A stretch of 64,000 nt of DNA from Bifidobacterium psychraerophilum (GTDB taxonomy: Bacteria > Actinomycetota > Actinomycetes > Actinomycetales > Bifidobacteriaceae). The position numbers were made by a program, and so were the translations under genes. The stretch covers positions 1 to 64,000 of the forward strand of contig NZ_JGZI01000011.1 in NCBI RefSeq assembly GCF_000741705.1, written 5' to 3'. This document shows positions 8,295 to 26,270 of this stretch, one piece after another. The notes beneath the pieces are model-generated. The model made no database searches. It saw nothing but the letters and a program-made list of their open reading frames with translations, and was not told the origin of the DNA. How positions within the stretch are numbered: position 1 is the first letter of the stretch; each line of letters begins with the position of its first letter.

Positions 8295-9689
8295 TCACCC
8301 GAAGTAGCCTTCCGAACAGAGCAACTCGCATGATTCCAGAAGACGTTCGGCATCCTGCTGGGTGAACACCAGCGGTGGTCGAAGTTTCAGCGTGCTGCCC
8401 TCCGCGCCGGCGGCTGAGATGAGCACCCTCTCGTCACGAAGACGGTTGATGATCGACCGTGCAGCCTGCGGATCGCCGCCGTGGCATCCGCTGGAATCCC
8501 GGCCGTCGCTAATGTCGATGCCGATGAACAGACCGGCATGTCTGATGCCGCCGAAGCGTGATCTTCCGGCGAGCAGGGATTCCAGCTCCGTGCTGATGAA
8601 ATCCCCCATCCCTTTGGCGTGGGACTGCAGATGCATATCCTCGATCTGGTCAAGAACCGCGCCCGCTGCCCTCATCGAGACGGGATTGCCTCCGAAGGTA
8701 TTGAAATATCTGGTGCTTTCCGCAAAGGCATCGCCGACGGCCTCCTTGTACACCACAGCCCCCGTGGGGATGCCGTTGCCCATCGGCTTGCCCATCGTCA
8801 CCACATCGACCGCGGCATGATGCCTCTCGAAACCCCAGAATTCATCGCCTGTTCGGGCGAAACCCGACTGCACCTCATCGGCGATGAGTATGCCGCCCAC
8901 CTTATGCACCGCTTCGGCTATATCGTCCACCCACCCGGGCGCGCCCGGAAGAACCCCGTCGGAGGAGAAGATCTGGTCGAGCAGCACGGCCGATACGCCA
9001 TAACCCGCAGCGTGCAACTGCCGGAAGGCATGCTGGAAGCGGCTGAGCAGGGTGGCACGGATCTCCGCTTCGGGCAACCCGCCCGTGAGCAGGTCGCTGA
9101 CCTCGACCGTGGCGAGGAACGGCGCCAGCGGCACACCCGTCCCGAAACTCGGCGACACCGAGGAGACCAATGATGTTATGCCGTGATAGGCGTTCGAAGT
9201 GACCACCACCCCTTGATGACCCGTGTACACCCTCGCCATGCGCAAGGCCAGATCATTGGACTCGGAACCCGAATTGGTGAAACTCACCCGGTTCAGCAAT
9301 GCCGGAAAATGCCAGAGCAGACGTTCGGCATAATCCAGAACCTCATCCTGGAGATACCGCGAATGCGTGTCCTGGAGTCCGAGCTGCCCGTTGACCGCCT
9401 CGCGCACCTTGGCGTTGGCATGGCCGACGCAGGCCACGTTGTTGTAGCAATCGAGAAAATCGTCCCCCTGCGCATCGAAGAGGTGGGCGCCCTCCCCGCG
9501 GACCACATGGATGGGCCGGTCATAGAACAATGGCCCCAGCGTGCCCAGCACCCGCCTGCGCCTTTCGACCAGCGCGCGTTCCTGCGGATTCAGGGCCTTC
9601 ATCCCCTGAGCGAAATCAAAGGCGTTCGACACCTGCTTCTTGCCCGATGCGGATTCACCCTGTGCTGATTCACCCCGTGACAGTGACAT
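8295..9689 (-). CDS. Class III PLP enzyme, ethanolamine-phosphate / phosphohydroxylysine phospho-lyase type
   Basis: The 464-aa protein has the class III fold, with PLP aspartate D271 in LIADEVQSGFARTG and lysine K301 in VTMGKPMGNGIPTG. The segments TMGKPMGNG, STRYFNTFGGNPVSMRA and LKLRPPLVF are characteristic of the AGXT2L1/AGXT2L2 (ETNPPL/PHYKPL) branch. Those enzymes carry out ammonia- and phosphate-releasing elimination on O-phosphoethanolamine or 5-phosphohydroxylysine instead of transamination. The gene for a matching kinase lies immediately upstream (111 bases), preceded by an alcohol dehydrogenase gene. The start at 9689 is preceded by AAGGGAAG. The N-terminus encodes RGESAQGESASG from a two-copy 15-bp repeat (9645-9674). 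Which of the two substrates is used cannot be read from sequence. Confidence 0.85.
   Translation of the reverse strand: MSLSRGESAQGESASGKKQVSNAFDFAQGMKALNPQERALVERRRRVLGTLGPLFYDRPIHVVRGEGAHLFDAQGDDFLDCYNNVACVGHANAKVREAVNGQLGLQDTHSRYLQDEVLDYAERLLWHFPALLNRVSFTNSGSESNDLALRMARVYTGHQGVVVTSNAYHGITSLVSSVSPSFGTGVPLAPFLATVEVSDLLTGGLPEAEIRATLLSRFQHAFRQLHAAGYGVSAVLLDQIFSSDGVLPGAPGWVDDIAEAVHKVGGILIADEVQSGFARTGDEFWGFERHHAAVDVVTMGKPMGNGIPTGAVVYKEAVGDAFAESTRYFNTFGGNPVSMRAAGAVLDQIEDMHLQSHAKGMGDFISTELESLLAGRSRFGGIRHAGLFIGIDISDGRDSSGCHGGDPQAARSIINRLRDERVLISAAGAEGSTLKLRPPLVFTQQDAERLLESCELLCSEGYFG
9645..9674 (-). repeat. 15-bp tandem repeat, 2 copies, in coding sequence
   Basis: Two adjacent 15-bp units (9645-9659 and 9660-9674) sharing the gattcacc core encode GESA-type pentads near the N-terminus of the phospho-lyase-type enzyme. 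It is the shortest of several 14-15 bp tandem tracts in this window. Confidence 0.5.
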
Positions 9690-9800
9690 ATTGCTTCCCT
9701 TTCCTCGACGTCCGTCCAATTCGAAAACATTCACTTCGCCATCATTCATTCCGATGCCCGTAGCCTCCCTGTGGGTTGCCCTCCGCGGGGATCAGGATCA

Positions 9801-10946
9801 TCAGGTCGACATCCGATCTCCCGCGGCCCGGGGATCCTCCCGCCCGGCATCGCCCAGGCCCAGCATCTCCAGGAGTTCCTGCTTGCTGTGGCTTTGCATC
9901 ACATTCAGGCGTCCCAATCGTGCCTGAGGTCCGGAGAGGTAGTGATCCGGGTCCACGCCCGCTTGCAGCTGCGCCATAATCGGAAGCACCAGGGCCAGGG
10001 CGCTGCGTGCCTCCATCAGGGTCGGCAGCAAGGCGAGTGTATCCTCGTCGCCGTGCATCACCTGTGGTGATGATGCATCATTGCGCACACTCCAGAGATA
10101 CCCCTGCAGCAATCGTCGGCAGGCCTCCAAGGGGGCCTGGGAAGAGGCATCCGCATCAACCCCATAGCAGAGGCACGTCCCCACATCGCAGATCGGCGGC
10201 ATCATATGCATATCCCCGAAATCCATGATTCCGGCGAGGGCATTCGGCCTCGACGGCTCGACCGTCAGGTTCCCCGGATGGAAATCTCCGTGGCACATGC
10301 TTTCGGGAAGGCTCTCCACCTGCGACGACACAGACAGGTAGCTCTCCACGGCATGCTCGACCGCGCTGCGGATTTCGGCATTGTCCATCTCGGGAAGGGT
10401 CCCCTCGGCGATCTCCGGCAGCAGACGAATATCCCAAAGCACTCTACCGAGTCGATCCTCGAAAGCCCGCTGGCGGGCCAGCACGCTTTGGATACGCGCC
10501 AAGGAGTCCCCCATGGCGAAGAGCAGCAGGTCGGAGGGCGCATGCTCCGACTGGGCAAGCACCTGCCCTGGAAGGAAGGTGGTGAGTGTGACGGCCCGAC
10601 TCTCATCACCCTGCCGGTATGCGGATACCAGTTGCCCATCCGTGCCGGCCAGGATTCTCGTCACCGGCAGATCGGGCTCATGTTCCTGCAGCGATCGCAG
10701 GGCCTCGGCCCTCATCCTCACGGCCTCCCGGCTTTCCATGGGATGTTCGATCTTCAGAATCCACTGCGGCCCACTCCGCCCCGATGCCGTCACAGCGAAG
10801 GTGTCGTCTCGCTCCGTGGCGATGCGCCTGAGATTCGCCCCTCTGATCGCGTAGCCGTCTTCAAGCACCGCCAAGGCATCATGCTCGTCGACAGGACGAT
10901 GCGGCACGCACAGCGCCTGGTACCCTTCATAATCCTGCATCCCCAT
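9801..10946 (-). CDS. APH-fold small-molecule kinase, hydroxylysine/ethanolamine kinase type
   Basis: The 381-aa protein has an aminoglycoside-phosphotransferase-like kinase fold. The N-lobe reads ATERDDTF (48-51 region) and WILKI with Lys65. The catalytic loop is HGDFHPGN at 219-226 and the metal-binding segment is GIMDFGDM at 239-246. The TERDDTF, ILKI, PDLPVTR and DFGDM combination is what is known of hydroxylysine kinase (AGPHD1) and of the kinase domain of bacterial proteins in which this kinase is fused to a class III phospho-lyase. Here the two are separate adjacent genes. The product would be a phosphorylated amino alcohol. It starts 5 bases after the dehydrogenase stop, with GAGG upstream, so translation is probably coupled. 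It is not expected to be an antibiotic resistance enzyme. Confidence 0.8.
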   Translation of the reverse strand: MGMQDYEGYQALCVPHRPVDEHDALAVLEDGYAIRGANLRRIATERDDTFAVTASGRSGPQWILKIEHPMESREAVRMRAEALRSLQEHEPDLPVTRILAGTDGQLVSAYRQGDESRAVTLTTFLPGQVLAQSEHAPSDLLLFAMGDSLARIQSVLARQRAFEDRLGRVLWDIRLLPEIAEGTLPEMDNAEIRSAVEHAVESYLSVSSQVESLPESMCHGDFHPGNLTVEPSRPNALAGIMDFGDMHMMPPICDVGTCLCYGVDADASSQAPLEACRRLLQGYLWSVRNDASSPQVMHGDEDTLALLPTLMEARSALALVLPIMAQLQAGVDPDHYLSGPQARLGRLNVMQSHSKQELLEMLGLGDAGREDPRAAGDRMST

Positions 10947-10951
10947 GATGA

Positions 10952-11995
10952 TTACCTCACTTTGATCATCGGTTTGATCGTGCGTCGCTGATCCATATCG
11001 GCATATGCGCGGGCGATGTCTTCAAGCCCGTACTCCTGCGTGTACACCATTCCGGGGTCTATCTGCCCATCGAGCACCGCGGGCAGCAGGGACCCGATGT
11101 AGTGATGGGCCGGCGACATACCGCCCGTGATGGTGATGTTCTTGTAGAACAGGGTTTTCACATCGATTTCCACCCCATGCGGCAGACCCACATAGCTGAG
11201 CGAAGCGCCCGCTGCGCACATGTCGATCGCCGTGGTGAAGGATTGGGCGGAACCGACGCATTCGAGCACCACGTCGGACATGCTGCCCGATGTGAGCGTC
11301 CCGACCATCTCCACGGCTTCCTGTCCCCGCGCTTCGATGACCTCATCGGCTCCGAAGAGGCGTGCAAGCCTGTGCCTGTCCTCATGGGAGCTCCCGGCAT
11401 TGATCACACGCCCGGCCCCAAGGAGTTTCGCCGCCATGATCGCGCAGAGACCCACCGCCCCATCACCCACGACGGTGACGGTATCGCCGGCTTTCACATG
11501 GGCGCATACGGCCGCGTGATAGCCGGTGGTGAACACATCGGTGAGCGTCAGTAGGCTGGGGATCAGGGATTCATCAGGTCTGCCCCCATCGGGAAGGGCT
11601 TTGACCAAGGTGCCGTCCGCCTGCGGCACGCACGCGGCTTCGCCCTGACCGGCATCGATGCTTTCGCGGCCCCAGAAGCCACCGTTGATGCAACTGGTCT
11701 CCAAGCCTCTGCGGCAGTAGTCGCACTCACCGTCGCTGTACCGGAAGGGGACCACAACCCAGTCCCCCGCCTTCACACTGCTCACCTGCGAACCGACTTC
11801 ACGTACCGTTCCCACGAATTCATGCCCGATACGGCTCGGCGCATCGGCCCCCTGGCCACGGTAGGTCCACAGATCGGAACCACATACCCCTGCGTATTCG
11901 ATGTCCACGATCGCATCGGTGGGTCGCGCAATCACCGCATCGGGTACATCATCAAGCGTCACCGAGTGGTCTCCGTGGTATACAGCTGCCTTCAT
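10952..11995 (-). CDS. Zinc-dependent alcohol dehydrogenase (MDR family)
   Basis: The 347-aa protein has a GroES-like catalytic domain with catalytic zinc ligands in GVCGSD and GHEF, and a Rossmann domain with VVGDGAVG. The structural-zinc lobe has only three of the usual four cysteines (CDYC...C), and the first position is occupied by an acidic or polar residue, as in the actinobacterial subgroup with the following SCINGGFWG. The reaction is NAD(P)-linked alcohol/aldehyde oxidoreduction. ATG at 11995 has GAAAGG 9 bases upstream, better than the ATG two codons earlier. The kinase gene follows after 5 bases. The operon context suggests that it reduces the aldehyde made by the phospho-lyase, for example acetaldehyde if the substrate is phosphoethanolamine. 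Confidence 0.87.
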   Translation of the reverse strand: MKAAVYHGDHSVTLDDVPDAVIARPTDAIVDIEYAGVCGSDLWTYRGQGADAPSRIGHEFVGTVREVGSQVSSVKAGDWVVVPFRYSDGECDYCRRGLETSCINGGFWGRESIDAGQGEAACVPQADGTLVKALPDGGRPDESLIPSLLTLTDVFTTGYHAAVCAHVKAGDTVTVVGDGAVGLCAIMAAKLLGAGRVINAGSSHEDRHRLARLFGADEVIEARGQEAVEMVGTLTSGSMSDVVLECVGSAQSFTTAIDMCAAGASLSYVGLPHGVEIDVKTLFYKNITITGGMSPAHHYIGSLLPAVLDGQIDPGMVYTQEYGLEDIARAYADMDQRRTIKPMIKVR

Positions 11996-12151
11996 ATTCA
12001 TTCACCTTTCTGTTCCGTCATATACGGCAATCGTGTTCCCTGATCCCCGAGACAATGCACATGGCGCGATAATCGGGGGATCTTCGCACCACGACGGATG
12101 CGGGACCCTCGATTCGCCGCACCCGCCCGGGATGCTGGGATGCCACGGCTT

Positions 12152-13465
12152 TCAATATTCATTCGTCCAGCTCCCTGCGCTGATTTCGGCATTCCGCTGC
12201 CGAAGATTGCGCAAAGCCTTCGGCAGCATCACGCTGAAACCGATAAGACCGATGATCCAGATCGGATATTGCGCCAGCACCGCAATGCGCATCGTGTGAT
12301 CCGAGTAGAGATTCGGATTGTCCGCACCCTGCCAGTCGAGCAGCAATCCCACGCCGAGCAGCACCAGACCGGATGAGAGGAAGCCTCCGATGTTCGCGAG
12401 CCCCGTGGCAGTGCCCAGATCCCTGGGAGCGTTGGCCTCCCGCGCGAAATCGAAGGCCAGACTCGAAGCGGCCATACCGCTGGAAATGGCAAGCAGCAGC
12501 GCGATCATCAGCACTCTGGAATGCGGTCCCTCCGTCAGCAGCAGAATGGTCCAACAGAGCATCTGCGCACCGACGGTCCCGTACACCAGCAGCACACGAC
12601 CCCGCACCGGATGCGAACTGGCGAAACGGCCGAAAAACATCGCCAACACCACGCAACTGAGCGTGCCACTGGCCAGGTATGCGCTCGCCTGCGCATATGA
12701 ATACCGCTCGACTGCGAGCAGGAAAGGGAAACCCCATAACTGGTTCATCATCGTATTGGAGAACCAGGTGATGCTGTGCACCCAGAAACCGCATACCGTT
12801 CCCGGTATCCTCGCCACGGTACCCAGATTCCTGATCGCATGGTGTCCGGTGCCGACGGGTGGCCGTATGGCGGGTGCGGATGGGTTCGCCGGGCTCTCTC
12901 GCAGCAGCGTCATCACGCAGAAGGCGATCATCAATCCGACGCCGGCGAGCGACAGGAAGGCGGTCTGCCATGATGTCAGATTCATCACCCACACGAAGGG
13001 GTATACCGAGATGATCTGCCCCAGATTACCGATCTGTCCTGTCAGCTGGTTCATCAGAGGCAATCGGCGCAAGGGGAACCAGGCAGCCAGCAAACGGATC
13101 ACCGAGATGAAGATCAGGGCATCCCCTGCACCCACGATCGCTCTGGCCACAACCGCCATGCCGGTGACCGTGGAGACCGCCAGCAGCCCCTGTCCCAGTG
13201 ACATCAGGCAGCAACCCGCCACAATCATGGCCTTCGGGCCGAAGCGGTCCAGCAGCATGCCGGCAGGAATCTGCATAATCGCATAGACGAAGAGCTGCAG
13301 ATAGACGAATGATGAGAGCGCCGAGCTGGAGATGTCGAAATACAAGGCGGCCTGAATGCCTGTGGCGGAAAGCGATGACCGGCACGTCGCCGCGAAGATA
13401 TATCCTCCCAGCGCCAGCGCCCACATCGCATATGCCATAGGGCTGCCGCGGCGTATCGTACTCAT
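12152..13465 (-). CDS. MFS transporter
   Basis: The 437-aa membrane protein has twelve probable hydrophobic segments. After a short cytoplasmic N-terminus, the first helix begins at about residue 10. MLLDRFGPKAMIVAGC matches the MFS loop 2-3 signature (D-R-x-G) and FFGRFASSHPVRGRVL lies at the equivalent loop in the second half. The general form is that of metabolite transporters of the MFS_1 group. Start 13465 follows GAGGTGAG closely. It lies within the co-oriented island between the amidohydrolase gene and the alcohol dehydrogenase gene, so it may import the amide substrate or export an end product. The direction and substrate are not evident. Confidence 0.82.
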   Translation of the reverse strand: MSTIRRGSPMAYAMWALALGGYIFAATCRSSLSATGIQAALYFDISSSALSSFVYLQLFVYAIMQIPAGMLLDRFGPKAMIVAGCCLMSLGQGLLAVSTVTGMAVVARAIVGAGDALIFISVIRLLAAWFPLRRLPLMNQLTGQIGNLGQIISVYPFVWVMNLTSWQTAFLSLAGVGLMIAFCVMTLLRESPANPSAPAIRPPVGTGHHAIRNLGTVARIPGTVCGFWVHSITWFSNTMMNQLWGFPFLLAVERYSYAQASAYLASGTLSCVVLAMFFGRFASSHPVRGRVLLVYGTVGAQMLCWTILLLTEGPHSRVLMIALLLAISSGMAASSLAFDFAREANAPRDLGTATGLANIGGFLSSGLVLLGVGLLLDWQGADNPNLYSDHTMRIAVLAQYPIWIIGLIGFSVMLPKALRNLRQRNAEISAGSWTNEY

Positions 13466-13560
13466 CTCACCTCTCTCCTCATGCTGCCATTCCTCCGCTG
13501 TTCATGACCGTGACCGGCCCCTCAGCGCTTTCACTGCGTGATGTTCCCTGCCGTCGGCGG

Positions 13561-15204
13561 TCAGGAACGCGTGTACCGCACGACTCCACCGATAATCGTC
13601 TGCATCACCGCGATCTCATGCAATGCTCCGGGTTCGACGCGATGGGGATCTTCGTCAAGCACGGCGAAGTCGGCGAATTTCCCGGGACTGACCGATCCGA
13701 GCACATCCTCCTTATGCGAGGCGTAGGCGCTGCCATAGGTGTATGCCTTCAAGGCATCATCAACACTCAGACGCTCCTGCTCCCCCAGGAGGAAGCCTTT
13801 GGCGGTCAGCCGTGTCACCATGCCCTCGATCGAGGTCAGCGGATCGACGGGTGCGCAGGGGGCATCGGTGCTGCCGGGGATCAGTGCCCCTCTGTTCACG
13901 AATGCCCCCATGCGATAGGCTCGGCGAGCCCGCTCCTCACCGAGCAGTTCAACGTAGGCGTCACCGTTGTTCTTGATGAAACTGCCCTGCGGATTCGGGA
14001 TGATCCCATCGGCGATGATCCGCTCGACGGTGGCGTCGTCGGCGATGCCGCAGTGTTCCAGACGATGACGTGCATCCTTCCTCGGATACTTCGCCTGGGC
14101 GTATTCGAAGGCATCCAATGCGATGTTGATGGCCCTGTCCCCTATCGCATGGACAGCGACCCGCCATCCTTCACGCTGCAAGGTCGCCACGTGGTGTTTG
14201 AACTCCTCAGGATCCCAACTCAGCACCCCGTGGTTTTCAGGATGCCCCAGATACGGCTCGCTCAGCAGGGCGGACAGGCTGTTGAATGCGCCGTCCAGAA
14301 TCACCTTGGCCGGGCCGATGTCGAGCAGTCCTCCTTCGAATCCACTGCGGATGCCAAGGTCGAGACCGAAACCTTCCGTGATGTCCCCGGTGAGCTGCCC
14401 AAGATCATGCAGCGCGCTGTAGTACGGCATCATCGTGCCGCGCTGATGGATGAGCCCACGATCATAGGCGCTCTGGAACAATCCGATATCATCCGGCGTC
14501 TGCCCGATGCCCTCCCAGTTATGGTCGGTGCCGGTACCGCCGTCGGTGAAGCTGGTGATGCCGAGGGCGAGGGTGTGTTCACCCGCCAGGCGCAGCTGGT
14601 GCAACAAGGTCTCCTCGGGCACGCGGTTCGCTACCCCGGTCAGCATGAAACAGAATTTGTCTTTTACCAGACCGGTGACCTTCCCGTGCTCCTGAATCAC
14701 CAGATCGGTGTCTTCAATCTCCTCGGGACGCTCGAAGCCGGCGCGTCTGAACGCTTCGGTATTGACCACGGCCGCATGATTCGACAGATGCAGGATCAGC
14801 AGGGGGTGCCCGTGGGAGATGGAGTCGAGCCGCTCGATATCGGGGAAGGCTCCAAGTGAGAATTGGTCGAATCCCCAGCCAAGCACCCAGCCTTCACCTG
14901 GCGCGGATTCACAGGCGGATTCGACTTTTCGGTACAGCTCATCAAGCGTGCCGGTCGTCTGCTTGCGCAGATCGACCTGGTTGAGATTCGCCCCGAGCAA
15001 GGAGAAATGCAGGTGCACATCGTTGAAGCCCGGGCACACATACCTTCCCTGAAGATCGATATGCTCCTTGGCTTCGACGCCGTCCAACTCCTCGTCAAGG
15101 GCCACGATCCGACCGTGGTGGACGCCTATCGTGGTGGCCGTCGGATGTGCAGGATCCATGGTCTGCACACAAGCGTTTTCAAAAATCGTATCGATCGCAA
15201 ACAT
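13561..15204 (-). CDS. Amidohydrolase family protein (YtcJ-like, amidohydrolase 3)
   Basis: The 547-aa metal-dependent hydrolase belongs to the amidohydrolase superfamily. The N-terminal composite-domain strand MFAIDTIFENACVQTMD is followed by GRYVCPGFNDVHLHF, in which H-L-H gives two metal ligands. Further landmarks are GWVLGWGFDQ, VAVHAIGDRAI, HRLEHC and the late PGSTDAPCAPVDP, whose Asp is typically catalytic. Homologues of the YtcJ group hydrolyse N-substituted formamides and related amides, but most are uncharacterised. No signal peptide is seen, so it acts in the cytoplasm. Start 15204 has AGGGGG about 10 bases upstream. It lies directly after the amidase gene, and the two probably act on the same class of substrate. 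Confidence 0.87.
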   Translation of the reverse strand: MFAIDTIFENACVQTMDPAHPTATTIGVHHGRIVALDEELDGVEAKEHIDLQGRYVCPGFNDVHLHFSLLGANLNQVDLRKQTTGTLDELYRKVESACESAPGEGWVLGWGFDQFSLGAFPDIERLDSISHGHPLLILHLSNHAAVVNTEAFRRAGFERPEEIEDTDLVIQEHGKVTGLVKDKFCFMLTGVANRVPEETLLHQLRLAGEHTLALGITSFTDGGTGTDHNWEGIGQTPDDIGLFQSAYDRGLIHQRGTMMPYYSALHDLGQLTGDITEGFGLDLGIRSGFEGGLLDIGPAKVILDGAFNSLSALLSEPYLGHPENHGVLSWDPEEFKHHVATLQREGWRVAVHAIGDRAINIALDAFEYAQAKYPRKDARHRLEHCGIADDATVERIIADGIIPNPQGSFIKNNGDAYVELLGEERARRAYRMGAFVNRGALIPGSTDAPCAPVDPLTSIEGMVTRLTAKGFLLGEQERLSVDDALKAYTYGSAYASHKEDVLGSVSPGKFADFAVLDEDPHRVEPGALHEIAVMQTIIGGVVRYTRS

Positions 15205-15256
15205 CGTGTTTCGTTCCCCCTGATTCGTTTACCCGTATTCCGTGCTGTTCCCACCC

Positions 15257-15353
15257 GGTGGTATTCACCCGGCGTTATTCATCCGGTGCATCTACCCGGT
15301 GCCACCTACCCAGTGCCATCGACCCAGTGCCATCGACCCAGTGCCATCGACCC
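15257..15353. repeat. 14-bp tandem repeat array, about 7 units
   Basis: Seven consecutive units of 14, 14, 13, 14, 14, 14 and 14 bp end in accc or atcc. The last three (15312-15325, 15326-15339, 15340-15353) are identical copies of agtgccatcgaccc, and the earlier ones are progressively diverged. The array fills the space between the amidohydrolase start and the amidase stop. It is too short and has no spacers, so it is not a CRISPR. Confidence 0.85.
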
Positions 15354-15357
15354 CGCT

Positions 15358-17400
15358 CTATATCAAGGAGGAGGTCGTCGCGCCCAGCCGTGGCATATCC
15401 CGAACCTTGACATCGGCTCCTATGGACCCGCCGCTGCCCGAGTACAACGCGACCACGGCGATGCGCCTCGCATCGAATATGGATGCAAGGGAGATCTCCC
15501 CGGTCCAGGGCTCATCACGTGACCACTCGTCGACCAGCATGCCGTTGATGAAGATCCTGCATGCGCAGCGGTGTTCCGGCTGTGCGGCATGGACACTGTA
15601 TGCGACGGCACCGTTCCCGACCTCCACTTCAAGTGCCGCCTGCATCGCCGGACCGGACGCACCCGCACCCGCAGCGCCATAATCCATATCGATGCGTGCG
15701 AGCTTCTGTATCGGCGGGGTGCGTGCGGGGGCCGTGCGCCGGTGCCCCGACTGCTCATAGGCATACGCGCATGCGAGCAACAAGCGGTCGCTGCCCGAAG
15801 GAGCCATGAAGGTGAGCCCGGCTGGAACACCGGTGTCATCCATCAGTCCCATATTCACACTGACGGTCGGGATGCCCAGATGCCGTATCATGCGGTTGCC
15901 GTTGGAGAAGAAGGTGCCATCCTGCCATGCTTCGGTGTTATGCACCGTATCCACATCGGCATCGGCGCGCCCGATGTTGCTGTTCGTCGGGAAGATCAGC
16001 ACATCCAAGCGCTGGGAGCGCATCCACTCCTCCAGATGCCGCTGGCGAATACTCTCAAGCCCCCGCAGCCCCTCGGCCAGTTTCGGTGTGCTGTCGAGGG
16101 GAAGCAGTCTGCCCGAGCGGATGTATTCGGCGGCCTGCTGGTAGAAACCGTATTGCCAGTGGGTGCGATGCGCCACCGAGTTGAAAGGGTTGGGGAAGAT
16201 GTCATCCGGATTCACATCAAGCAGGCTGTCCAACCCGGACATATCGAATGAGGTGATGAACTCCTGCAATGCGGCTGCATTGAGTTGGAGCCACTCATGC
16301 TCCATCCAATCGCGCGGGATCAGGCCTTCGTCCGCGAAGGTCTTCAGATCGCGTGGGGCGGCTTCGTAGGCATCGCGCAATGGGAGCGAGGTCCACCGCA
16401 CTTCGGCGCCGAGCGCTTCGAGATCGTCCACGGCGCGCAGCAGCAAGGCGCTGATGCTCGGTCTCGTGTAGACGGAGGGTATCACTCCCCCGATGCGACC
16501 GGCGTATTCCTTGACCACCCCGATGCGAAGCCCGGCCAAGGCATCCATATCCGCGACCCCGGCAAAGCCTTCCTCGCGGAATCGCCGTGCCCCCTCGAGC
16601 GGGACATATGATTGCCTGCGCCACATATCGCCCCGGGTGTCGTCATCCTCACGCGTGAGCGCCGGCAGCAGTTCCAACAGATCCGGAACCGTCCTCGTAT
16701 GCGGTACGACTTCATCCTTGGTCGCGTGCAGCACCCAGTTGCCACGCAGCGAAATGACCCCGCGCGACGGCGTGTAGGCGACAACACCGTTATTGGCCGC
16801 CGGGGAGCGTCCGGAGGAAACCGTCTCCTCACCCATGCCGAAGGCCGCGAAACTGGCCGCGGTGGATACCGCCGATCCGTGGGATGAACCGGAGTACCAT
16901 GCCGCGGCAAGGTACTCGCCGTTGTAGGGGTTCTCGGATCTGCCGTAGACCCCGCGCTGCACGCCACCGGCCGCCATCGGCGGCATATTGGTGCGCCCCA
17001 GGAGTATGGCGCCTTCCTGTCGCAGCGATGCGACCGAAAAACTGTCTTCGTTGGCGACGACGTGCGCGAATGCGGGTGAGCCCGCCGCCATGGTCATGCC
17101 CTTGGCCATATAACTGTCTTTTACGGTATACGGAATGCCATGCAAGGAGCCATGCGCCTTGCCTTGGGCACGCTGAGTGTCTTTGCGCATCGCCTCCTTG
17201 ATGGCATCGGAGGCGATGATCGGTGTCGAATTGAGATGTATGCCGTTGACGTCGTAGAAGAACAATCTGTTCAGGTATGCGACCACGAGTTCCGTGGAGG
17301 TGCTTCGTCCGTCGGCCAGCATGGCTTTCATATCGCTGATACTCAGCTCACAGGGATCCTGGTACTGCTGCCCGATGGCGGTATTCCTCGATGAACGCAT
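15358..17400 (-). CDS. Amidase-signature hydrolase with a C-terminal beta-rich extension
   Basis: The 680-aa enzyme is a member of the amidase-signature family (GatA, fatty acid amide hydrolase, allophanate hydrolase and others). The Ser-cisSer-Lys triad is recognisable: Lys94 in YTVKD, cis-Ser about 172 in SGSSHGSA, and nucleophile Ser about 196 in ETVSSGRSP, where the family usually has D-T-G-G-S-I-R. The core is longer than in typical 450-500 aa amidases. About 115 residues at the C-terminus (from about 566) form an additional domain with short hydrophobic strands and a surface glycine/serine loop, of unknown role. ATG at 17400 has AAGGAG at 7-8 bases. Neighbours are a peptide-type binding protein upstream and an amidohydrolase downstream, suggesting hydrolysis of an imported amide. 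Confidence 0.82.
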   Translation of the reverse strand: MRSSRNTAIGQQYQDPCELSISDMKAMLADGRSTSTELVVAYLNRLFFYDVNGIHLNSTPIIASDAIKEAMRKDTQRAQGKAHGSLHGIPYTVKDSYMAKGMTMAAGSPAFAHVVANEDSFSVASLRQEGAILLGRTNMPPMAAGGVQRGVYGRSENPYNGEYLAAAWYSGSSHGSAVSTAASFAAFGMGEETVSSGRSPAANNGVVAYTPSRGVISLRGNWVLHATKDEVVPHTRTVPDLLELLPALTREDDDTRGDMWRRQSYVPLEGARRFREEGFAGVADMDALAGLRIGVVKEYAGRIGGVIPSVYTRPSISALLLRAVDDLEALGAEVRWTSLPLRDAYEAAPRDLKTFADEGLIPRDWMEHEWLQLNAAALQEFITSFDMSGLDSLLDVNPDDIFPNPFNSVAHRTHWQYGFYQQAAEYIRSGRLLPLDSTPKLAEGLRGLESIRQRHLEEWMRSQRLDVLIFPTNSNIGRADADVDTVHNTEAWQDGTFFSNGNRMIRHLGIPTVSVNMGLMDDTGVPAGLTFMAPSGSDRLLLACAYAYEQSGHRRTAPARTPPIQKLARIDMDYGAAGAGASGPAMQAALEVEVGNGAVAYSVHAAQPEHRCACRIFINGMLVDEWSRDEPWTGEISLASIFDARRIAVVALYSGSGGSIGADVKVRDMPRLGATTSSLI

Positions 17401-17559
17401 CACTGACTCCTTAGGACTCGTCGGCATCTCCCGCACCGGCCTGTCATCATGCCGGATCGGTCGGTCATATATGAGCTCGCAGTGCTGCCGCGACGCCTGT
17501 GACCAGGCGCCATAGCAGCATGCGAGATTGCTTATTGCTGATGAACGGCCAAGCCGCCC

Positions 17560-19122
17560 CTACTCCTTGAGCTGCAGGTTGTAATACACCGGTCCCTGCA
17601 TCCCTGATGAATAGCCGCCGAGTTTGCTCGATACGGCGCTGATCTGCTGGTATTTGCTGACGATGATGTTCGGCACATAGTCGTAGAACCAGTCCTGGAG
17701 CTTGTCGTAACCGGCCTTCTGATCACTCTCCGAGGTGGCTGCATTGATGCTGTCCGCGATGGTCTTGAACTCGGGGTCGGTGTTCCAGCCCGCACCCGAA
17801 GCCTGGAAGAAGGAGTAGCTGATCGGGTTGGCGGAGTAGCTGTAGCTGGAGATGAGCATATCCCACGATCCCGGCTCGAACATCTTCTGCAGCACGCTGG
17901 CCCAGTCGAGTACCTGGATGTCGGTTTTGATGCCGACCGCATTGAGCTCGTTCTGGATCTCCATGCTCTCGTCGTACATGTATGGATAATCCTTGGTGGT
18001 CAGGAAGGTGATCGTGCTTCCGTCGTATCCCGATTCCTGGATGAGCTTCTTGGCCGCCGCGGTATCCGGGTTGTTGTACTTATCGAGGCTCGACTCCGAA
18101 CGCAAGGGGCTGGTCTTGGGCATCAGACCGCCATCGGTGTTGTACAGATCCGAGTTCTGGTGTCCCGCCTTGGCGATCTTGCTCATATCGAGGCTTGCGA
18201 GAATCGCCTGGCGAAGCTTCTGGTTGTCCTTGAAAATGCCCTCCTGCTTGTTGAAGATCAGGGTTTCCAGCATCTCGTCCTTCTCGACCTTGACGTCCGA
18301 GCTGGCCTTCGCCTGGGCGTACTGGGAGTCCGCGAGCGAATATCCGATTTCGTATTGTCCGCTCAACGCTCCGGTCAGACGTGTGGTGCCGTCGGTGACG
18401 AAATCGAATTCCATCTTGTCCGCGTGAGGTGTGCGGGCACCCGAATAGCCGTCTGACTTCCCGTCTGGGGAGGAGTAGTCCGCGAACTTCTCCAGGATGA
18501 TATTCGTATCCTTCTTCCACGAGCTGTACTTGTACGGACCGGTGCCGATATACTCCTGCACGCCGGTGTCGGTGGCCTTGTCGATAACCGTCTTCGGCAT
18601 GATGGCCGCGATCCTTCCGGTGTCGGCCATCAGGTAGAGGCCTGTCGAAAGGGCCTTGGGGGATGTGATGACCACGGTATCGGCGTCGGGCGATGTGACC
18701 GTCGAGCCGGTGAAGAAGGTGCTGCCGATCTGGGAGAGCTTGATCCAGCGTTGCATGGAGGCGACCACATCCTCGGCCTTCATCGTCGCCCCATTATGGA
18801 ATTTCACTCCGGTGCGCAGTTTGAAGGTGAAGGTCTTGTTGTCGCTGCTCACCTCATAGCTTTTGGCGAGCAGGGGCGCCACACTGCCGTCCGCCTTCAG
18901 CGTGACCAGTGATTCGTAGATGTTGCGCATGGTGTCACGGGCGACGTAGGCCCCCGTGATCATAGGATCGAGACTGGTGACCGTGGCATTGAGCGCGATG
19001 TGGACCGTGCCCCCTTCCACGCCTTCCCCTGATGATGATGAACTTGAACCGCAGGCCGTCAGGCTGAGCAGCGTTGCGATGGCCGCCCCGATGGCGATCA
19101 CCTTATTCCTCAACTTGTTCAT
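17560..19122 (-). CDS. Extracellular solute-binding lipoprotein, family 5 (DppA/OppA type)
   Basis: The 520-aa lipoprotein has a positively charged N-terminus, a hydrophobic segment and the lipobox LTAC at about residues 21-24, followed by a serine-rich linker. The SBP family 5 landmarks are TVTSLDP, FTFKLRTGVKFHNG, GTGPYKYSSW and the C-terminal YVPNIIV. It should be anchored to the outer face of the membrane and deliver a peptide, or another ligand such as an opine or amide, to the ABC permease encoded upstream. Its gene comes last in the transporter group, whereas the binding protein gene usually comes first. GAGAGG precedes the ATG. The ligand is unknown. Confidence 0.92.
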   Translation of the reverse strand: MNKLRNKVIAIGAAIATLLSLTACGSSSSSSGEGVEGGTVHIALNATVTSLDPMITGAYVARDTMRNIYESLVTLKADGSVAPLLAKSYEVSSDNKTFTFKLRTGVKFHNGATMKAEDVVASMQRWIKLSQIGSTFFTGSTVTSPDADTVVITSPKALSTGLYLMADTGRIAAIMPKTVIDKATDTGVQEYIGTGPYKYSSWKKDTNIILEKFADYSSPDGKSDGYSGARTPHADKMEFDFVTDGTTRLTGALSGQYEIGYSLADSQYAQAKASSDVKVEKDEMLETLIFNKQEGIFKDNQKLRQAILASLDMSKIAKAGHQNSDLYNTDGGLMPKTSPLRSESSLDKYNNPDTAAAKKLIQESGYDGSTITFLTTKDYPYMYDESMEIQNELNAVGIKTDIQVLDWASVLQKMFEPGSWDMLISSYSYSANPISYSFFQASGAGWNTDPEFKTIADSINAATSESDQKAGYDKLQDWFYDYVPNIIVSKYQQISAVSSKLGGYSSGMQGPVYYNLQLKE

Positions 19123-19172
19123 GGTTTCCTCTCTTATTGGTGTTGTAAGGGTGTGGAGTTACAGATGTGGTG

Positions 19173-20003
19173 TTATGCGGCCATCAGCTGGTGCCGCCGC
19201 GGGTCGGGAAGCGGGATGCTCCCCAGGAGATTGCGGGTGTAGTCGGTCCGGGGATTCCCGAAGATCTGCTCGACGGTGCCCTCCTCGACCAGCTCCCCCT
19301 TGCGCAGCACGCCGATGCGGTCGGCGATGAACCTGACCACGCTCAGATCGTGGGTGATGAAGAGATAGCTCAGTGAGAACTCCTCCTTCAGATCCTGCAG
19401 CAGGTTGAGCACCTGGGCCTGCACCGAGACATCCAATGCGGAGACGGACTCGTCGAGAATCAGAATCTTCGGTCTCACCACAAGCGCCCTGGCTATATTC
19501 ACACGCTGCAACTGGCCTCCGGAGAACTGATGGGGGAAACGGTCGATCTGCTTGCTGGACAGTCCTACACGCTCGATCATGTCCACCGCCATATCGAGAC
19601 GGTCACTGCGGGAATCTCCGATTTTTTGGATCTCCAAGGCTTCCACAATGGCGTTGCCCACGGCTTTGCGTGGGTTCAACGCCGAGAAGGGATCCTGGAA
19701 GACCATCTGGATATTCCCTCGGATACGCTCGCGCAGCAGCGATGGGGAATAATCGGTGTAATTGTTTCCCTCGAACACGATAGAACCGGTCGTCGGCTTC
19801 TCCAGGGCGCAGATGATGCGGCCGGTGGTGCTCTTACCGCTTCCCGATTCGCCCACCAAGGCATAGGTCTGCTTGCCCGCGAGTTCGAATGAGACATTCT
19901 GCAGGGCATGGAAGACCGAAGCGCCCTTCCTGGTCAGACCCCGGCTGATGAAGTCCTTGTAGATGCTGTTGACCTGGAGTATCGGATTCTCCTGATTCGT
20001 CAT
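19173..20003 (-). CDS. Peptide-type ABC transporter ATPase (DppF/OppF type)
   Basis: The 276-aa nucleotide-binding subunit has Walker A GESGSGKST, Q-loop QDPFSALNPRK, signature HQFSGGQLQRVNIARAL and Walker B ILDESVSALDVSVQ. The Walker B motif has ILDESVSALD, as in the OppF/DppF group. The protein ends shortly after the conserved region, without the C-terminal cysteine-containing extension seen in its partner. The ATG overlaps the stop of the partner ATPase gene by 4 bases, so translation is coupled. Together the two ATPases form the motor for the DppB/DppC-type permeases encoded upstream. Confidence 0.92.
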   Translation of the reverse strand: MTNQENPILQVNSIYKDFISRGLTRKGASVFHALQNVSFELAGKQTYALVGESGSGKSTTGRIICALEKPTTGSIVFEGNNYTDYSPSLLRERIRGNIQMVFQDPFSALNPRKAVGNAIVEALEIQKIGDSRSDRLDMAVDMIERVGLSSKQIDRFPHQFSGGQLQRVNIARALVVRPKILILDESVSALDVSVQAQVLNLLQDLKEEFSLSYLFITHDLSVVRFIADRIGVLRKGELVEEGTVEQIFGNPRTDYTRNLLGSIPLPDPRRHQLMAA

Positions 20004-21103
20004 GACGCCACCTTCCTGAATTCACCGATTTCCGCGAGTCTGATGCACCGGGCTCCATGTCGTTCGGCGATGGATTGCATGTCGATGACGCTTTTCCTGC
20101 ACTCGTCGGCGACGAAGGGACATCGTGATGCGAAGCGGCATCCACTTCCTGCCACCTCCGACAGCTGCGGAACGGAGCCGGGAATGGTGCTCAAGCGCTC
20201 GGGCCTGTCGCCATCCAGAGGCGGTGTGGCGGCGAGAAGACCCTGCGTGTAAGGATGCCGTGGGTGTGCGAACAGCTCATCCACTGGAGCGGATTCGACG
20301 ATCTGCCCCAGGTACATCACCTCGACCCGGTCGCACATCTGCGCGACCACACCCATATCGTGGGTGATCAGGATGATGCTCATGCCCCGCTTGTCCCGGA
20401 GACCCCGCAACACCTTCAGCAACTGCATCTGAATGGTCACATCGAGTGCCGTGGTGGGTTCGTCTGCGATCAGAAGCTTGGGATGGTTGATCAATGCGAT
20501 GCCGATCACGACGCGTTGCAGCATGCCACCCGAAAGCTGGTATGGATACCGTTCCATCCATGCTTTGGGATCGTCCGAACCGGCATCCTCCAACGCTTCG
20601 ATGCAGCTGGCTTCGACCTCCTCCTTGCCAAGGGAGGTCTGATGGGCGTGCACCGTCTCCCTGAGCTGCTGACCTATGGTCATCAGGGGGTTGAGGCTCG
20701 ACATCGGATTCTGAAAGATGAAGCCGATATCCCCGCCCCTGAGCTCCCTCAACTGTTTGGGGGACAAGGAGAAGATATCGCTGCCATCGAAGGTGATGCT
20801 GCCCTGGTACTTCGTGCTGCGTTCGTTATGCAGGCGCATGATCGAGAAGGAGGTGACGCTTTTCCCGCAGCTGGATTCACCGACGATACCGAGGATCTCA
20901 CCTTGGCGGACGCTGAAATCAACTCCTTCGACCGCGTTGTTCCAGGACTTTTTCGCTCCCTGGAAGCTGACCACGAGATCGCGCACCTCCAACATCGCGC
21001 TCATGGCACCCGAATCCTGCCGACCGTCAGGCATATCCTCCCCCGTCCCTTTGTGCGCATCCACGGATCCGCCGATTCTTGTCGCTTCCGCAATACCCGT
21101 CAT
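20000..21103 (-). CDS. Peptide-type ABC transporter ATPase (DppD/OppD type)
   Basis: The 367-aa nucleotide-binding subunit has Walker A GESSCGKSV, Q-loop QNPMSSLNP, signature YQLSGGMLQRVVIGIAL and Walker B LIADEPTTALDVT. It ends with the oligopeptide-transporter C-terminal domain: HPYTQGLLAATPPLDG followed by GCRFASRCPFVADEC, whose cysteines can bind an iron-sulfur cluster in relatives. ATG at 21103 has GAAGGTG 6 bases upstream. Starts further in are possible because the first 35 residues are not conserved. The gene begins 5 bases after the permease stop and overlaps the next ATPase gene by 4 bases. Confidence 0.9.
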   Translation of the reverse strand: MTGIAEATRIGGSVDAHKGTGEDMPDGRQDSGAMSAMLEVRDLVVSFQGAKKSWNNAVEGVDFSVRQGEILGIVGESSCGKSVTSFSIMRLHNERSTKYQGSITFDGSDIFSLSPKQLRELRGGDIGFIFQNPMSSLNPLMTIGQQLRETVHAHQTSLGKEEVEASCIEALEDAGSDDPKAWMERYPYQLSGGMLQRVVIGIALINHPKLLIADEPTTALDVTIQMQLLKVLRGLRDKRGMSIILITHDMGVVAQMCDRVEVMYLGQIVESAPVDELFAHPRHPYTQGLLAATPPLDGDRPERLSTIPGSVPQLSEVAGSGCRFASRCPFVADECRKSVIDMQSIAERHGARCIRLAEIGEFRKVAS

Positions 21104-21108
21104 GCCAA

Positions 21109-21990
21109 TCACCTTCTTCTCTTGGGATCGAAGACCTCACGCAGGCCGTCGCCGAACATATTGATGACGAAGACGGTCAAAGCCAGCGCGACACCTGGGA
21201 ACACCGTCATCCACCAGGCCGAGTAGATGTAGGTGCGGCTGTCGTAGAGCATGTTGCCCCAGCTCGCCTGGGGCTGTGGGATACCCGCGCCGATGAAACT
21301 CATCGCGGCCTCGACCAGGATGGCGTCGGCGAACACGAAGGTGACTTCCACGATCCACGCGCCGATCACGTTGAGCACGATGTTCTTCCACAGGATGCGG
21401 AAGCTGCCCGAACCGAGATTTACCAATACCTGCACGTAGTTTTCGTTCATATTGGTCATCGTCGCGGAACGGACGACGCGTGCGACCATCGGCACGAACA
21501 CGATCGACAGGGCCAGCACCACGCTTCTGGTGCTTTGGCCGAAGGAGCCGATGAATACGATTGCGAACAGGATGGCGGGGAAGGCCATCAGGCCATCACA
21601 GATACGCATCAGCAGATAGCCGATTTTGGGATAGTAGGCGGCGTACAGACCGACCACGAATCCTATTACCCCGGAGATCGCGGCGACTGAGATGCCCACC
21701 GTCAGCGATGCCTTGCCACCCAGCAGCACACGGGTGAAGGTGTCGCGTCCGACGTTGTCCGTTCCCATCGGATGCCCGGCACTCGGCGAGAGCAGCATGG
21801 CCGAGGTGTTGGTGGTGTAGCCGTCCATATTCCCCAGCCATGGCACCAGCACACAGGCCAGTGCGATCAGCAGCAGCAGCCCGCCGCCGATCATGGTTGA
21901 TGGGGAGGAGAGCACCGCATTCCACCAGGAATTCGAGCCCCTGCGTGTTTTCGCGGGCTTGTTGTGCGTGACAGCAGTTGCTTCGGTCAT
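21109..21990 (-). CDS. Peptide-type ABC transporter permease (DppC/OppC type)
   Basis: The 293-aa membrane subunit has one N-terminal helix, the domain-swapped segment HPMGTDNVGRDTFTRVLLGGKASL typical of DppC/OppC (positions about 73-96), then five helices. The cytoplasmic coupling loop is SFIGAGIPQPQASWGNML near the C-terminus. It forms the channel together with the DppB-type subunit. GAAAGG precedes the ATG at 21990, and the gene follows the DppB-type gene after only 2 bases, so the two are made together. Confidence 0.92.
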   Translation of the reverse strand: MTEATAVTHNKPAKTRRGSNSWWNAVLSSPSTMIGGGLLLLIALACVLVPWLGNMDGYTTNTSAMLLSPSAGHPMGTDNVGRDTFTRVLLGGKASLTVGISVAAISGVIGFVVGLYAAYYPKIGYLLMRICDGLMAFPAILFAIVFIGSFGQSTRSVVLALSIVFVPMVARVVRSATMTNMNENYVQVLVNLGSGSFRILWKNIVLNVIGAWIVEVTFVFADAILVEAAMSFIGAGIPQPQASWGNMLYDSRTYIYSAWWMTVFPGVALALTVFVINMFGDGLREVFDPKRRR

Positions 21991-21992
21991 GA

Positions 21993-22943
21993 TCAGAACG
22001 ACCTTTCTCGTATTCTCGGGTCAATGACCGCATACAGCACATCCGTGATGAGATTGACGATGATGAATACCAAGGCGACGAAGATCATGATGCCCTGGAT
22101 CATCTGGTAGTCACGACGAAGAATCGAATTGACGACCAATTGCCCGATACCCGGCACGTTGAAGACGGTTTCGACCACGATGGCCCCTGCTATCAGCTCG
22201 CCGAAGGACTGGCCGACAATGGTGAGGATGGGGATCGATGAATTCTTGAAGGCGTGTCCCCACAGCTGCTTGGAACGCGGGAGGCCTTTGGCCGCTGCGG
22301 TTCGGATATAGTCGCTGCCGAGGGCGTCGATCATCGAGGATCTGCTCATCCTGGAGATCAGTGCGATCTGCAGTGTGGCCACGGAAACCGCGGGGAGTAT
22401 CAGATGGGTGATGTATCCGGCGAAATCGTCGGAGGGGTACACGAATCCGCTGGCCGGCAGTAGTTTGAGCTGCAGCACGAAGAGGATCATCAGCAGCAGA
22501 CCTGCCAGGAAGCTGGGCAGTGATGTGGTCAGTGTGGCGAAGGCCAGCACGATCTTGTCCGCCAGCCTGCCATGCTTGTCGGCGGCGAGCACGCCCAGAG
22601 GTATGGCGATCGCCAGCGCGATCAACTCGCCGAACAGGGCGACCGAGAGGGTGGGGAACACATGGGACAGAATCGTCGGTGTCACCTTCTCGTTGAGGAT
22701 GTACGAATACCCCAGATCACCGTGCAGCATATTGACGAACCAGGTCCACAGCTGATTCGGCAGCGAGGCATTCAGCCCCATCTGCTCCCGTATGGCCTCG
22801 ACCTGTTCGGTGGTGGCATCGTTCCCGGCCACCACCCGGGCCGGATCCCCGCCGCTCAGATGCGACAGAGCGAAAGCGATGATGCCGACGATCATCAGTA
22901 CGGGTACTGCGGAGAGCAGCCTTTTCATCACATATCTACCCAT
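21993..22943 (-). CDS. Peptide-type ABC transporter permease (DppB/OppB type)
   Basis: The 316-aa subunit has six transmembrane segments. The N-terminal MKRLLSAVPVLMIVGIIAF segment, the large extracytoplasmic stretch with GLNASLPNQLW, and the coupling-loop region DYIRTAAAKGLPRSKQLWGHAFKNS are typical of DppB/OppB. It is the first gene of the transporter group, 106 bases after the class III aminotransferase, and those bases contain a 15-bp tandem repeat. No separate strong promoter is obvious in the gap, so the transporter is probably co-transcribed with the aminotransferase. Confidence 0.92.
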   Translation of the reverse strand: MGRYVMKRLLSAVPVLMIVGIIAFALSHLSGGDPARVVAGNDATTEQVEAIREQMGLNASLPNQLWTWFVNMLHGDLGYSYILNEKVTPTILSHVFPTLSVALFGELIALAIAIPLGVLAADKHGRLADKIVLAFATLTTSLPSFLAGLLLMILFVLQLKLLPASGFVYPSDDFAGYITHLILPAVSVATLQIALISRMSRSSMIDALGSDYIRTAAAKGLPRSKQLWGHAFKNSSIPILTIVGQSFGELIAGAIVVETVFNVPGIGQLVVNSILRRDYQMIQGIMIFVALVFIIVNLITDVLYAVIDPRIRERSF

Positions 22944-22990
22944 TGGTCACCCCCCTTTTCAGACAGCTTCGTGCTGCTTCGCATCGCCCT

Positions 22991-23050
22991 GTTCCCCAAC
23001 ACCTTGTTCCCAGACAATCTGTTCCCAAACATCCCGCTCCGAATCACCTT
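22991..23050. repeat. 15-bp tandem repeat, 4 copies
   Basis: Four consecutive 15-bp units (22991-23005, 23006-23020, 23021-23035, 23036-23050) share the pattern gttccc-a-aca. The tract fills the gap between the DppB-type gene and the stop codon of the class III aminotransferase, which begins at the last base of the fourth unit. Confidence 0.75.
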
Positions 23051-24357: not shown

Positions 24358-24462
24358 TCTTCCTCCTGACGGCTGCTGTTGGCATTGAACGCCTGTAAGC
24401 GGCATTCTTCATGACTACGGATACGGAAACAATGGAATATTCAGCACACGCGGCCTTCCGAT

Positions 24463-24477
24463 TGGACATTCTGTCCA
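24463..24477. promoter_or_regulatory. Candidate operator, perfect 15-bp inverted repeat
   Basis: TGGACA-TTC-TGTCCA is a perfect inverted repeat 106 bases upstream of the GabT-like gene start. A near-identical element with a 2-base spacer lies in the promoter of the transporter gene at 1614-1627. A regulator shared by the two catabolic groups, possibly the PucR-type protein encoded next door, could bind both. Confidence 0.4.
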
Positions 24478-26236: not shown

Positions 26237-26270
26237 ACCGACATGCTCCATAAGGTGCATGTCGGTATGG
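26233..26270. promoter_or_regulatory. Perfect 14-bp-arm palindrome over the PucR start codon
   Basis: ccataccgacatgc (26233-26246) and gcatgtcggtatgg (26257-26270) are exact reverse complements separated by 10 bases. The region includes both candidate start codons and the GGAG ribosome-binding sequence. It could be a DNA operator for autoregulation or an mRNA hairpin that hides the start codon. Confidence 0.75.

What the first reader, a model, noticed from the sequence alone, without database searches (positions are those of the whole stretch)
8295..11995. Unfused kinase, phospho-lyase and dehydrogenase genes for an amino alcohol
The APH-fold kinase (TERDDTF, PDLPVTR, DFGDM) and the class III enzyme (TMGKPMGNG, FNTFGGNP) match the two halves of the AGPHD1/AGXT2L1-AGXT2L2 system, in which an amino alcohol is phosphorylated and then ammonia and phosphate are eliminated to give an aldehyde. 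In several bacteria the two are one fused protein; here they are adjacent genes, with an alcohol dehydrogenase gene 5 bases upstream to deal with the aldehyde. The operon predicts conversion of ethanolamine to ethanol or of hydroxylysine to a semialdehyde, without microcompartment genes such as eutBC. This would be unusual for a bifidobacterium.
Basis: partly seen in the sequence, partly recalled or inferred. Interest (0 to 1): 0.75.

Follow-up and report, generated by a model that had tools for sequence, protein, structure and literature searches.

The report
Bifidobacterial amino-alcohol breakdown operon
A bifidobacterium carries a cluster of genes that probably imports an amide-bound amino alcohol, tags it with phosphate and splits it into ammonia, phosphate and an aldehyde; the core chemistry is of a known kind, but this branch of the enzymes looks new and its natural substrate is unknown.

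Summary
In detail: an APH-fold kinase (9801-10946), a PLP phospho-lyase (8295-9749) and a zinc alcohol dehydrogenase (10952-12001) lie in a row on the minus strand, kinase and dehydrogenase 5 bases apart. The lyase assignment is strong: in a 137-protein tree it falls with ETNPPL and phospholyase 5g4i against 16 transaminases, and it keeps the lyase-specific residues. Unfused neighbours are normal (41 of 80 named relatives adjacent, 1 fused), and phospholyases occur in 45 of 189 Bifidobacteriaceae genomes, so neither point is unusual. The three genes end a 13-gene PucR/aminotransferase/ABC/amidase/amidohydrolase/MFS cluster found in 8 family genomes; 4 others show only PucR, another ABC importer, kinase and lyase. 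In the samples searched, kinase and lyase form Bifidobacteriaceae-only clades on long stems, with lyase residues rare elsewhere. The same genome has a second set (kinase like the M. smegmatis aminopropanol kinase, amino acid permease, lyase) that better fits a free small amino alcohol. Most likely: a divergent pathway for an amino alcohol released from an amide. Ethanolamine or hydroxylysine cannot be read from the sequence. New variant of a known kind.

The parts
8295..9749 (-). PLP-dependent phospho-lyase (PLY, class III fold); GKPMGNG motif with the PLP lysine (lysine role recalled); start codon uncertain
9801..10946 (-). APH-fold small-molecule kinase (KIN), of the PRK06148 N-terminal type; HGDFHPGN and DFGD motifs
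10952..12001 (-). zinc MDR alcohol dehydrogenase (ADH); common subfamily: matches at E <= 1e-75 in 200 of 396 order genomes, own genome included
12152..13465 (-). MFS transporter (found in 6 of 8 full-type genomes)
13561..15204 (-). amidohydrolase (Amidohydro_3, AH3; the comparison with YtcJ is recalled)
15358..17436 (-). amidase-signature enzyme (AMD; PRK06565, 584 bits against cut-off 575)
17560..19122 (-). family 5 solute-binding protein of an Opp/Nik-type ABC importer
19173..20003 (-). ABC importer ATPase
20000..21112 (-). ABC importer ATPase
21109..21990 (-). ABC importer permease
21993..22943 (-). ABC importer permease
23050..24405 (-). class III aminotransferase (AT3; PRK08117, 587 bits against cut-off 574); falls with the transaminases, not the lyases
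24617..26260 (-). PucR-type regulator at the head of the cluster (regulation inferred)

Best explanation
The cluster at 8295-26260 is a catabolic operon whose last two genes encode a two-step ammonia-and-phosphate-eliminating module. Proposed order: the ABC importer (perhaps also the MFS protein) brings in a compound in which an amino alcohol is held in an amide bond; the amidase and/or the amidohydrolase frees the amino alcohol; the kinase puts a phosphate on its hydroxyl; the PLP lyase removes phosphate and ammonia together to leave an aldehyde; the dehydrogenase reduces (or oxidises) the aldehyde; the aminotransferase handles another amino group of the compound or of its partner; PucR controls the set. 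Shown by sequence: families, order, conservation, and membership of the lyase clade. Inferred: co-transcription, the reactions, their order, and that the substrate is not plain ethanolamine, because kinase and lyase have both diverged from the rest of their families and the same genome holds a second, permease-linked pair.
For: Both proteins hit the two ends of one fused model. The lyase's best solved relatives are two phospholyases, 5g4i (1.3e-95) and 6tor ETNPPL (1e-85), far ahead of the next entry, an aminotransferase (4.2e-41). 121 lyases and 16 transaminases split with 100% SH-aLRT (quick search). N103, N104, R131, W305, N325 and K455 are in 12 of 12 window-type and 109 of 109 other lyases and in 0 of 16 transaminases. 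Window-type lyases share D127 (11 of 12; 0 of 109 others, N in 101), S164, R360 and H404 (12 of 12 each; 4, 2 and 0 of 109 others) (picked after the fact by scanning about 415 positions). Stems 1.02 (lyase) and 1.87 (kinase). Kinase model pLDDT 88 matches homoserine kinase 2ppq and aminopropanol kinase 6ef6 (ranks 1 and 4). A PucR-family gene, aminotransferase, ABC set, binding protein, amidase, amidohydrolase and dehydrogenase are all found in 8 of 8 full-type genomes (in G116 the amidase and PucR gene on another contig; in G170 PucR only about 30% identical and divergent) and the four enzymes are absent together in the stretches of 4 of 4 minimal ones, which keep kinase and lyase. Recurrences with divergent members: in G116 C27 another kinase-lyase pair sits with amidase, aminotransferase, nitrilase-type and Amidohydro_3 genes; in G116 C29 and G131 a third lyase sits with another Amidohydro_3 gene and dehydrogenase; Ancrocorticia populi has aminotransferase (56%)-dehydrogenase (57%)-ABC-lyase-kinase; 5 of 22 order genomes outside the family have an amidase within 10 kb of the lyase, 0.47 expected (22 of the 27 such genomes with a lyase were tested).
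Against: No substrate can be derived; no activity is shown. G677 has PucR, aminotransferase, dehydrogenase, ABC and amidohydrolase together without kinase or lyase in the 16 kb fetched, and G131 has an aminotransferase-nitrilase-amidohydrolase group without them within about 9 kb (L210), so that half can stand alone. Two of 13 strong amidohydrolase hits in full-type genomes, and 4 of 4 in the two minimal genomes searched (G155, G156), are not near a lyase. Four of the five amidase-lyase neighbours outside the family are in one genus. Among the 78 named loci that are not window-type, only 1 shows an amidase hit and 3 an amidohydrolase hit (blastp with the window proteins only). The dehydrogenase subfamily is common. 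That the window-type residues line the pocket was not tested.
Confidence: 0.6

Rival explanations
1. Ethanolamine is the substrate: kinase makes phosphoethanolamine, lyase makes acetaldehyde, dehydrogenase makes ethanol.
For: Of the two closest solved relatives, 6tor is named ethanolamine-phosphate phospho-lyase; no EutB found in the genome, so a eut-independent route would be useful.
Against: The window-type lyase departs from 5g4i and ETNPPL at positions that almost all other lyases keep; the permease-linked second pair of the genome would suit a free small amino alcohol better; plain ethanolamine needs no amidase or binding-protein importer (inference).
Confidence: 0.15
2. 1-Amino-2-propanol or aminoacetone is handled here, with the dehydrogenase as aminopropanol dehydrogenase, as in the Mycobacterium/Rhodococcus microcompartment pathway but without a shell.
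For: Kinase model matches 6ef6 at rank 4; the profile of 14 kinases finds 6ef6 at 9.2e-9, just after homoserine kinase 2ppq at 8.5e-9; the dehydrogenase scores against L-threonine 3-dehydrogenase models, below their cut-offs; RMM1 loci also carry 'multiple hydrolases' of unstated kind (PMC4207490, passage).
Against: 6ef6 is much closer to the other kinase of this genome (5.7e-50) and the window kinase has no PDB hit by sequence at 1e-3; [quoted passage not shown]
Confidence: 0.1
3. Hydroxylysine (for example from collagen-type peptides) is the substrate; the lyase gives 2-aminoadipate semialdehyde and the second aminotransferase acts downstream.
For: Peptide-type ABC importer; human kinase-lyase precedent (recalled; Veiga-da-Cunha 2012 was not held, and was seen only in a reference list); D127 could in principle bind a second amine (speculation).
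Against: No aldehyde dehydrogenase among the 13 genes; an alcohol dehydrogenase is not expected; no direct comparison with human PHYKPL or HYKK was made.
Confidence: 0.08
4. The class III protein is an ordinary aminotransferase and the kinase phosphorylates something unrelated.
For: Same fold superfamilies.
Against: Tree split, lyase residues, kinase among partner kinases of lyases, both matching one fused model.
Confidence: 0.04

Closest known systems
Fused kinase/phospho-lyase proteins PRK06148 and PRK06149
   Same: Window kinase and lyase match their N- and C-terminal parts; fused kinase-lyase ORFs of 735-894 aa are in 11 loci of the phylum sample
   Different: Two separate genes here; far below the full-length cut-offs (358.6 and 115.4 bits against 1128)
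Phospholyase 5g4i/5g4j (Arthrobacter aurescens A1RDF1, organism and accession recalled) and human ETNPPL 6tor
   Same: Same lyase clade, same hallmark residues
   Different: Window-type has D127, S164, R360, H404 and a long stem; substrate unknown
Aminoacetone utilisation (RMM/Aaum) microcompartment pathway, kinase 6ef6
   Same: Phosphotransferase plus class III enzyme in an amino-alcohol locus (PMC4207490 and PMC8007038, passages)
   Different: No shell genes found, PucR and ABC importer instead of GntR and permease; 6ef6 is a close relative of the second kinase of this genome, not of the window kinase
KIN2-APC-PLY2-GntR set of the same genome (C9, L080:9233-14597)
   Same: Kinase and lyase of the same superfamilies
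   Different: 45% identical lyase, other kinase subfamily, amino acid permease and GntR/UTRA regulator

Membership tests
ETNPPL/PHYKPL-type phospho-lyases | Falls inside the lyase clade with ETNPPL and 5g4i, apart from transaminases | tested here: met
   121 lyases and 16 transaminases split at 100% SH-aLRT (quick search; the tool warns of long branches, ETNPPL among them)
ETNPPL/PHYKPL-type phospho-lyases | Residues shared by lyases and missing in transaminases; GKPMGNG motif kept | tested here: met
   N103, N104, R131, W305, N325, K455; motif
ETNPPL/PHYKPL-type phospho-lyases | Ammonia and phosphate release from phosphoethanolamine or phosphohydroxylysine | not testable with these tools
   needs purified enzyme
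AGPHD1/HYKK hydroxylysine kinase family | Direct orthology with human HYKK | not tested
   only indirect, through the N-terminal part of PRK06148
PRK06148/PRK06149 fused proteins | Kinase and lyase in one chain | tested here: not met
   two ORFs 51 bases apart; 358.6 bits against a cut-off of 1128
RMM/Aaum microcompartment pathway | Shell proteins | tested here: not met
   no PF00936 match in the genome; control rang in 2 of 14 genomes
RMM/Aaum microcompartment pathway | 6ef6-type kinase | tested here: not met
   window kinase: no PDB hit at 1e-3; the other kinase of the genome: 5.7e-50
eut ethanolamine ammonia-lyase pathway | EutB | tested here: not met
   no PF06751 match in the genome; control rang in 1 of 14 genomes

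The most novel reading that the evidence does not exclude
The window-type kinase and lyase are a co-diverged enzyme pair with a new substrate, and the full cluster is an undescribed pathway for amide-bound amino alcohols (amidase/amidohydrolase, then kinase, then phospho-lyase, then dehydrogenase), which some bifidobacteria use on a plant, food or host amide such as an N-acyl amino alcohol.
Probability: 0.35. Interest if true: 0.6.

Novelty: new variant of a known kind. Interest (0 to 1): 0.42.

Why it matters
Phospho-lyases of this kind have few known substrates. A clade seen only in Bifidobacteriaceae in these searches, tied to amide hydrolases and an importer, offers a concrete place to look for a new one, and would show how fermenting bifidobacteria take nitrogen and carbon from amino-alcohol amides without a microcompartment. 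It also corrects the view that kinase/phospho-lyase pairs are exotic in this family: two different systems coexist in one strain.

Tried and rejected
Rejected: 'unfused is unusual' and 'unusual for a bifidobacterium'. Rejected: a pseudogene in the G156/G157 kinases. One search counted one TAG in each, but the ORFs used run unbroken (352 aa each) and end inside the matched stretch, so the TAG is their own stop, read through by the search. Rejected as evidence: the dehydrogenase alone, because 200 of 396 order genomes have a match at 1e-75. The promoter and terminator scan found no more than shuffles did. Paper searches (one search was for the species) listed no paper on a bifidobacterial kinase/phospho-lyase pair or on 5g4i; many journals are not held, so this is not proof of absence. 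Rows dropped before counts: lyase matches with under about 330 residues and identical copies; kinase matches under about 180 residues and identical copies; kinase hits at or under 25 bits; in the amidase count 5 of the 27 out-of-family genomes with a lyase (G753, G666, G755, G814, G922) were not tested. The ORF picker sometimes chose the wrong strand in G+C-rich loci, so one search misses genes and its absences are weak. The kinase tree holds rows found by similarity to these kinases, mostly beside lyases, so its nesting is partly built in.

Own-genome identity: 2,615,078 bases in 11 contigs equals Bifidobacterium psychraerophilum LMG 21775, pig caecum, in the table of PMC5540593 (passage).
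Full report
What is there. Three minus-strand genes match the finding: lyase 8295-9749, kinase 9801-10946, zinc dehydrogenase 10952-12001, with 51 and 5 bases between them; all quoted motifs are present. Pfam gives Aminotran_3, APH and ADH_N/ADH_zinc_N; NCBIfam puts the kinase on the N-terminal and the class III protein on the C-terminal part of the same fused model PRK06148. They close a longer same-strand series: PucR regulator, class III aminotransferase, two permeases, two ATPases, binding protein, amidase, Amidohydro_3, MFS, then dehydrogenase, kinase, lyase. Gaps run from -4 to 211 bases and the pattern scan found no more terminator-like sites than shuffles; co-transcription is inferred. 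The next gene reads as glmM (named by eye).

Is it a lyase. By sequence the two best solved relatives are phospholyase 5g4i and ETNPPL 6tor, ahead of every transaminase listed. I gathered 137 related proteins (16 transaminases, 12 window-type, 109 other lyases including those two). N103, N104, R131, W305, N325 and K455 are in all 121 lyases and in none of the 16 transaminases; K455 aligns with R in 9 of 16, A in 5, H and Q in one each. That this column holds the carboxylate-binding arginine of GABA aminotransferase is recalled, not tested. The tree separates lyases from transaminases with 100% SH-aLRT (quick search; the tool warned that long branches meet, for example between transaminases and ETNPPL). 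The neighbouring aminotransferase 23050-24405 falls with the transaminases. Passages of PMC8154272 say that the documented lyases of this class were ethanolamine-phosphate phospho-lyase, a closely related enzyme and, newly, PbfA; the window lyase scores far lower with the PbfA model (153.9 bits) than with PRK06148 (358.6).

Is the kinase the right kind. In a 103-row tree the window kinase lies among kinases that sit beside, or are fused to, phospholyases, apart from a second subfamily. Its model (pLDDT 88) matches homoserine kinase 2ppq first and the aminopropanol kinase 6ef6 fourth, with amicoumacin kinase between. By plain sequence no PDB chain is found at 1e-3; a profile of 14 kinases finds 2ppq and 6ef6 near 1e-8. 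The rows were chosen by similarity to these kinases and the supports around the nesting are 80-95% with long branches, so this is weaker than the lyase result.

Ordinary and special. Among 80 named lyase loci (the best 80 of 584), 41 have a kinase next door on the same strand, 1 is fused, 19 have one within 6 kb otherwise, 19 have none found. In 189 family genomes 45 have a phospholyase at 1e-60. A window-type kinase at E below 1e-60 is in 12 of 189; a thirteenth genome passes 0.001 weakly. What is special is the clade: window-type lyases were seen only in Bifidobacteriaceae (12 genomes), on a stem of 1.02 changes per site; the kinases on one of 1.87. Outside the family the best lyase is 51% identical in a sample of 396 order genomes. 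Window-type lyases share D127 (11 of 12), S164, R360 and H404 (12 of 12 each), which 0, 4, 2 and 0 of 109 others have; these columns were picked after the fact from about 415 scanned.

Conservation of the cluster. In 8 genomes a PucR-family gene, aminotransferase, ABC set, binding protein, amidase, amidohydrolase, dehydrogenase, kinase and lyase are all found; MFS in 6 of 8. In G116 the amidase and a PucR gene, with a second copy of the aminotransferase, lie on another contig beside a different kinase-lyase pair; in G170 the PucR gene is only about 30% identical and points the other way. In 4 genomes of one other genus only PucR, a different ABC importer, kinase and lyase are found in the stretches examined (PucR and permeases not seen in G157, where the contig ends); the aminotransferase hits there are the lyase itself. 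pepN and/or glmM are found beside the set in 8 of the 11 other genomes. The kinase is the least conserved of the enzymes (36-53% against 70-78% for the dehydrogenase).

Recurrence elsewhere. G116 C27 has aminotransferase, nitrilase-type hydrolase, Amidohydro_3, kinase, lyase and PucR. G116 C29 and G131 have an ABC permease (by eye, sugar type), Amidohydro_3, dehydrogenase and a 5g4i-like lyase, with a kinase beside it in G131. Of 13 strong Amidohydro_3 hits (over 200 bits) in the 8 full-type genomes, 11 lie within 10 kb of a phospholyase; eight of these are one orthologous group, so there are three separate cases. The other two (L209, L210) have no lyase within about 9 kb, and L210 is an aminotransferase-nitrilase-amidohydrolase group like that of G116 C27 but without kinase and lyase. 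In two minimal genomes (G155, G156) 0 of 4 strong hits are near a lyase. Ancrocorticia populi has aminotransferase (56%), dehydrogenase (57%), another ABC importer, lyase, kinase. Of 27 order genomes outside the family with a lyase I tested 22 for amidases: 5 have one within 10 kb of the lyase against 0.47 expected (P 7e-5 if independent; four are one genus). Against: G677 has most of the upstream half without kinase and lyase in 16 kb, and the named loci show 1 amidase and 3 amidohydrolase hits in 78.

The other pair. The same genome has, on contig C9, kinase, amino acid permease, lyase and a GntR/UTRA regulator. Its kinase matches 6ef6 at 5.7e-50. [quoted passage not shown] The C9 set looks like that pathway without a shell; no PF00936 was found in the genome. 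If it takes a small free amino alcohol, the window pair is more likely to take something else (inference).

Conclusion. The chemistry is of a known kind, predicted with good support for the lyase and fair support for the kinase; the substrate is not determined. Novelty: a new variant, by clade, residues and gene company.

Noticed in passing
L080:9233-14597 (own genome, contig C9): Second kinase-permease-lyase-GntR set; kinase 5.7e-50 to the M. smegmatis aminopropanol kinase 6ef6; looks like a shell-less aminoacetone/aminopropanol pathway. Non-window-type lyases are in 38 of the 45 family genomes with a lyase, not all of this set
   Followed up: partly
L087:11055-16524 (Bifidobacterium subtile): Between lyase and permease of the second type lie a metallophosphoesterase and a family 6 binding protein with ABC ATPase and permeases (by eye), as if a phosphodiester or phosphonate of the amino alcohol were taken up
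   Followed up: partly
L178:5666-12243 and L176:5014-10607: Third, 5g4i-like lyase with an ABC permease (by eye), Amidohydro_3 and dehydrogenase
   Followed up: partly
window:15358-17436: Best solved relative of the amidase is Tse8 (6te4, 5.8e-144); about 115 C-terminal residues lie beyond the part matched
   Followed up: no
window:2690-4033: Another class III aminotransferase on the same strand, on a long branch of 2.72 among the transaminases
   Followed up: no
L206:1831-14118 (G677): PucR, class III aminotransferase, a hydroxyacid-dehydrogenase-like protein (by eye), dehydrogenase, ABC importer and Amidohydro_3-like gene without kinase or lyase: the upstream half as its own unit
   Followed up: partly
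L234 (G877): PucR-like gene (25%), class III aminotransferase (32%), phospholyase and amidase together in another family of the order; no kinase found by the two kinase profiles
   Followed up: no
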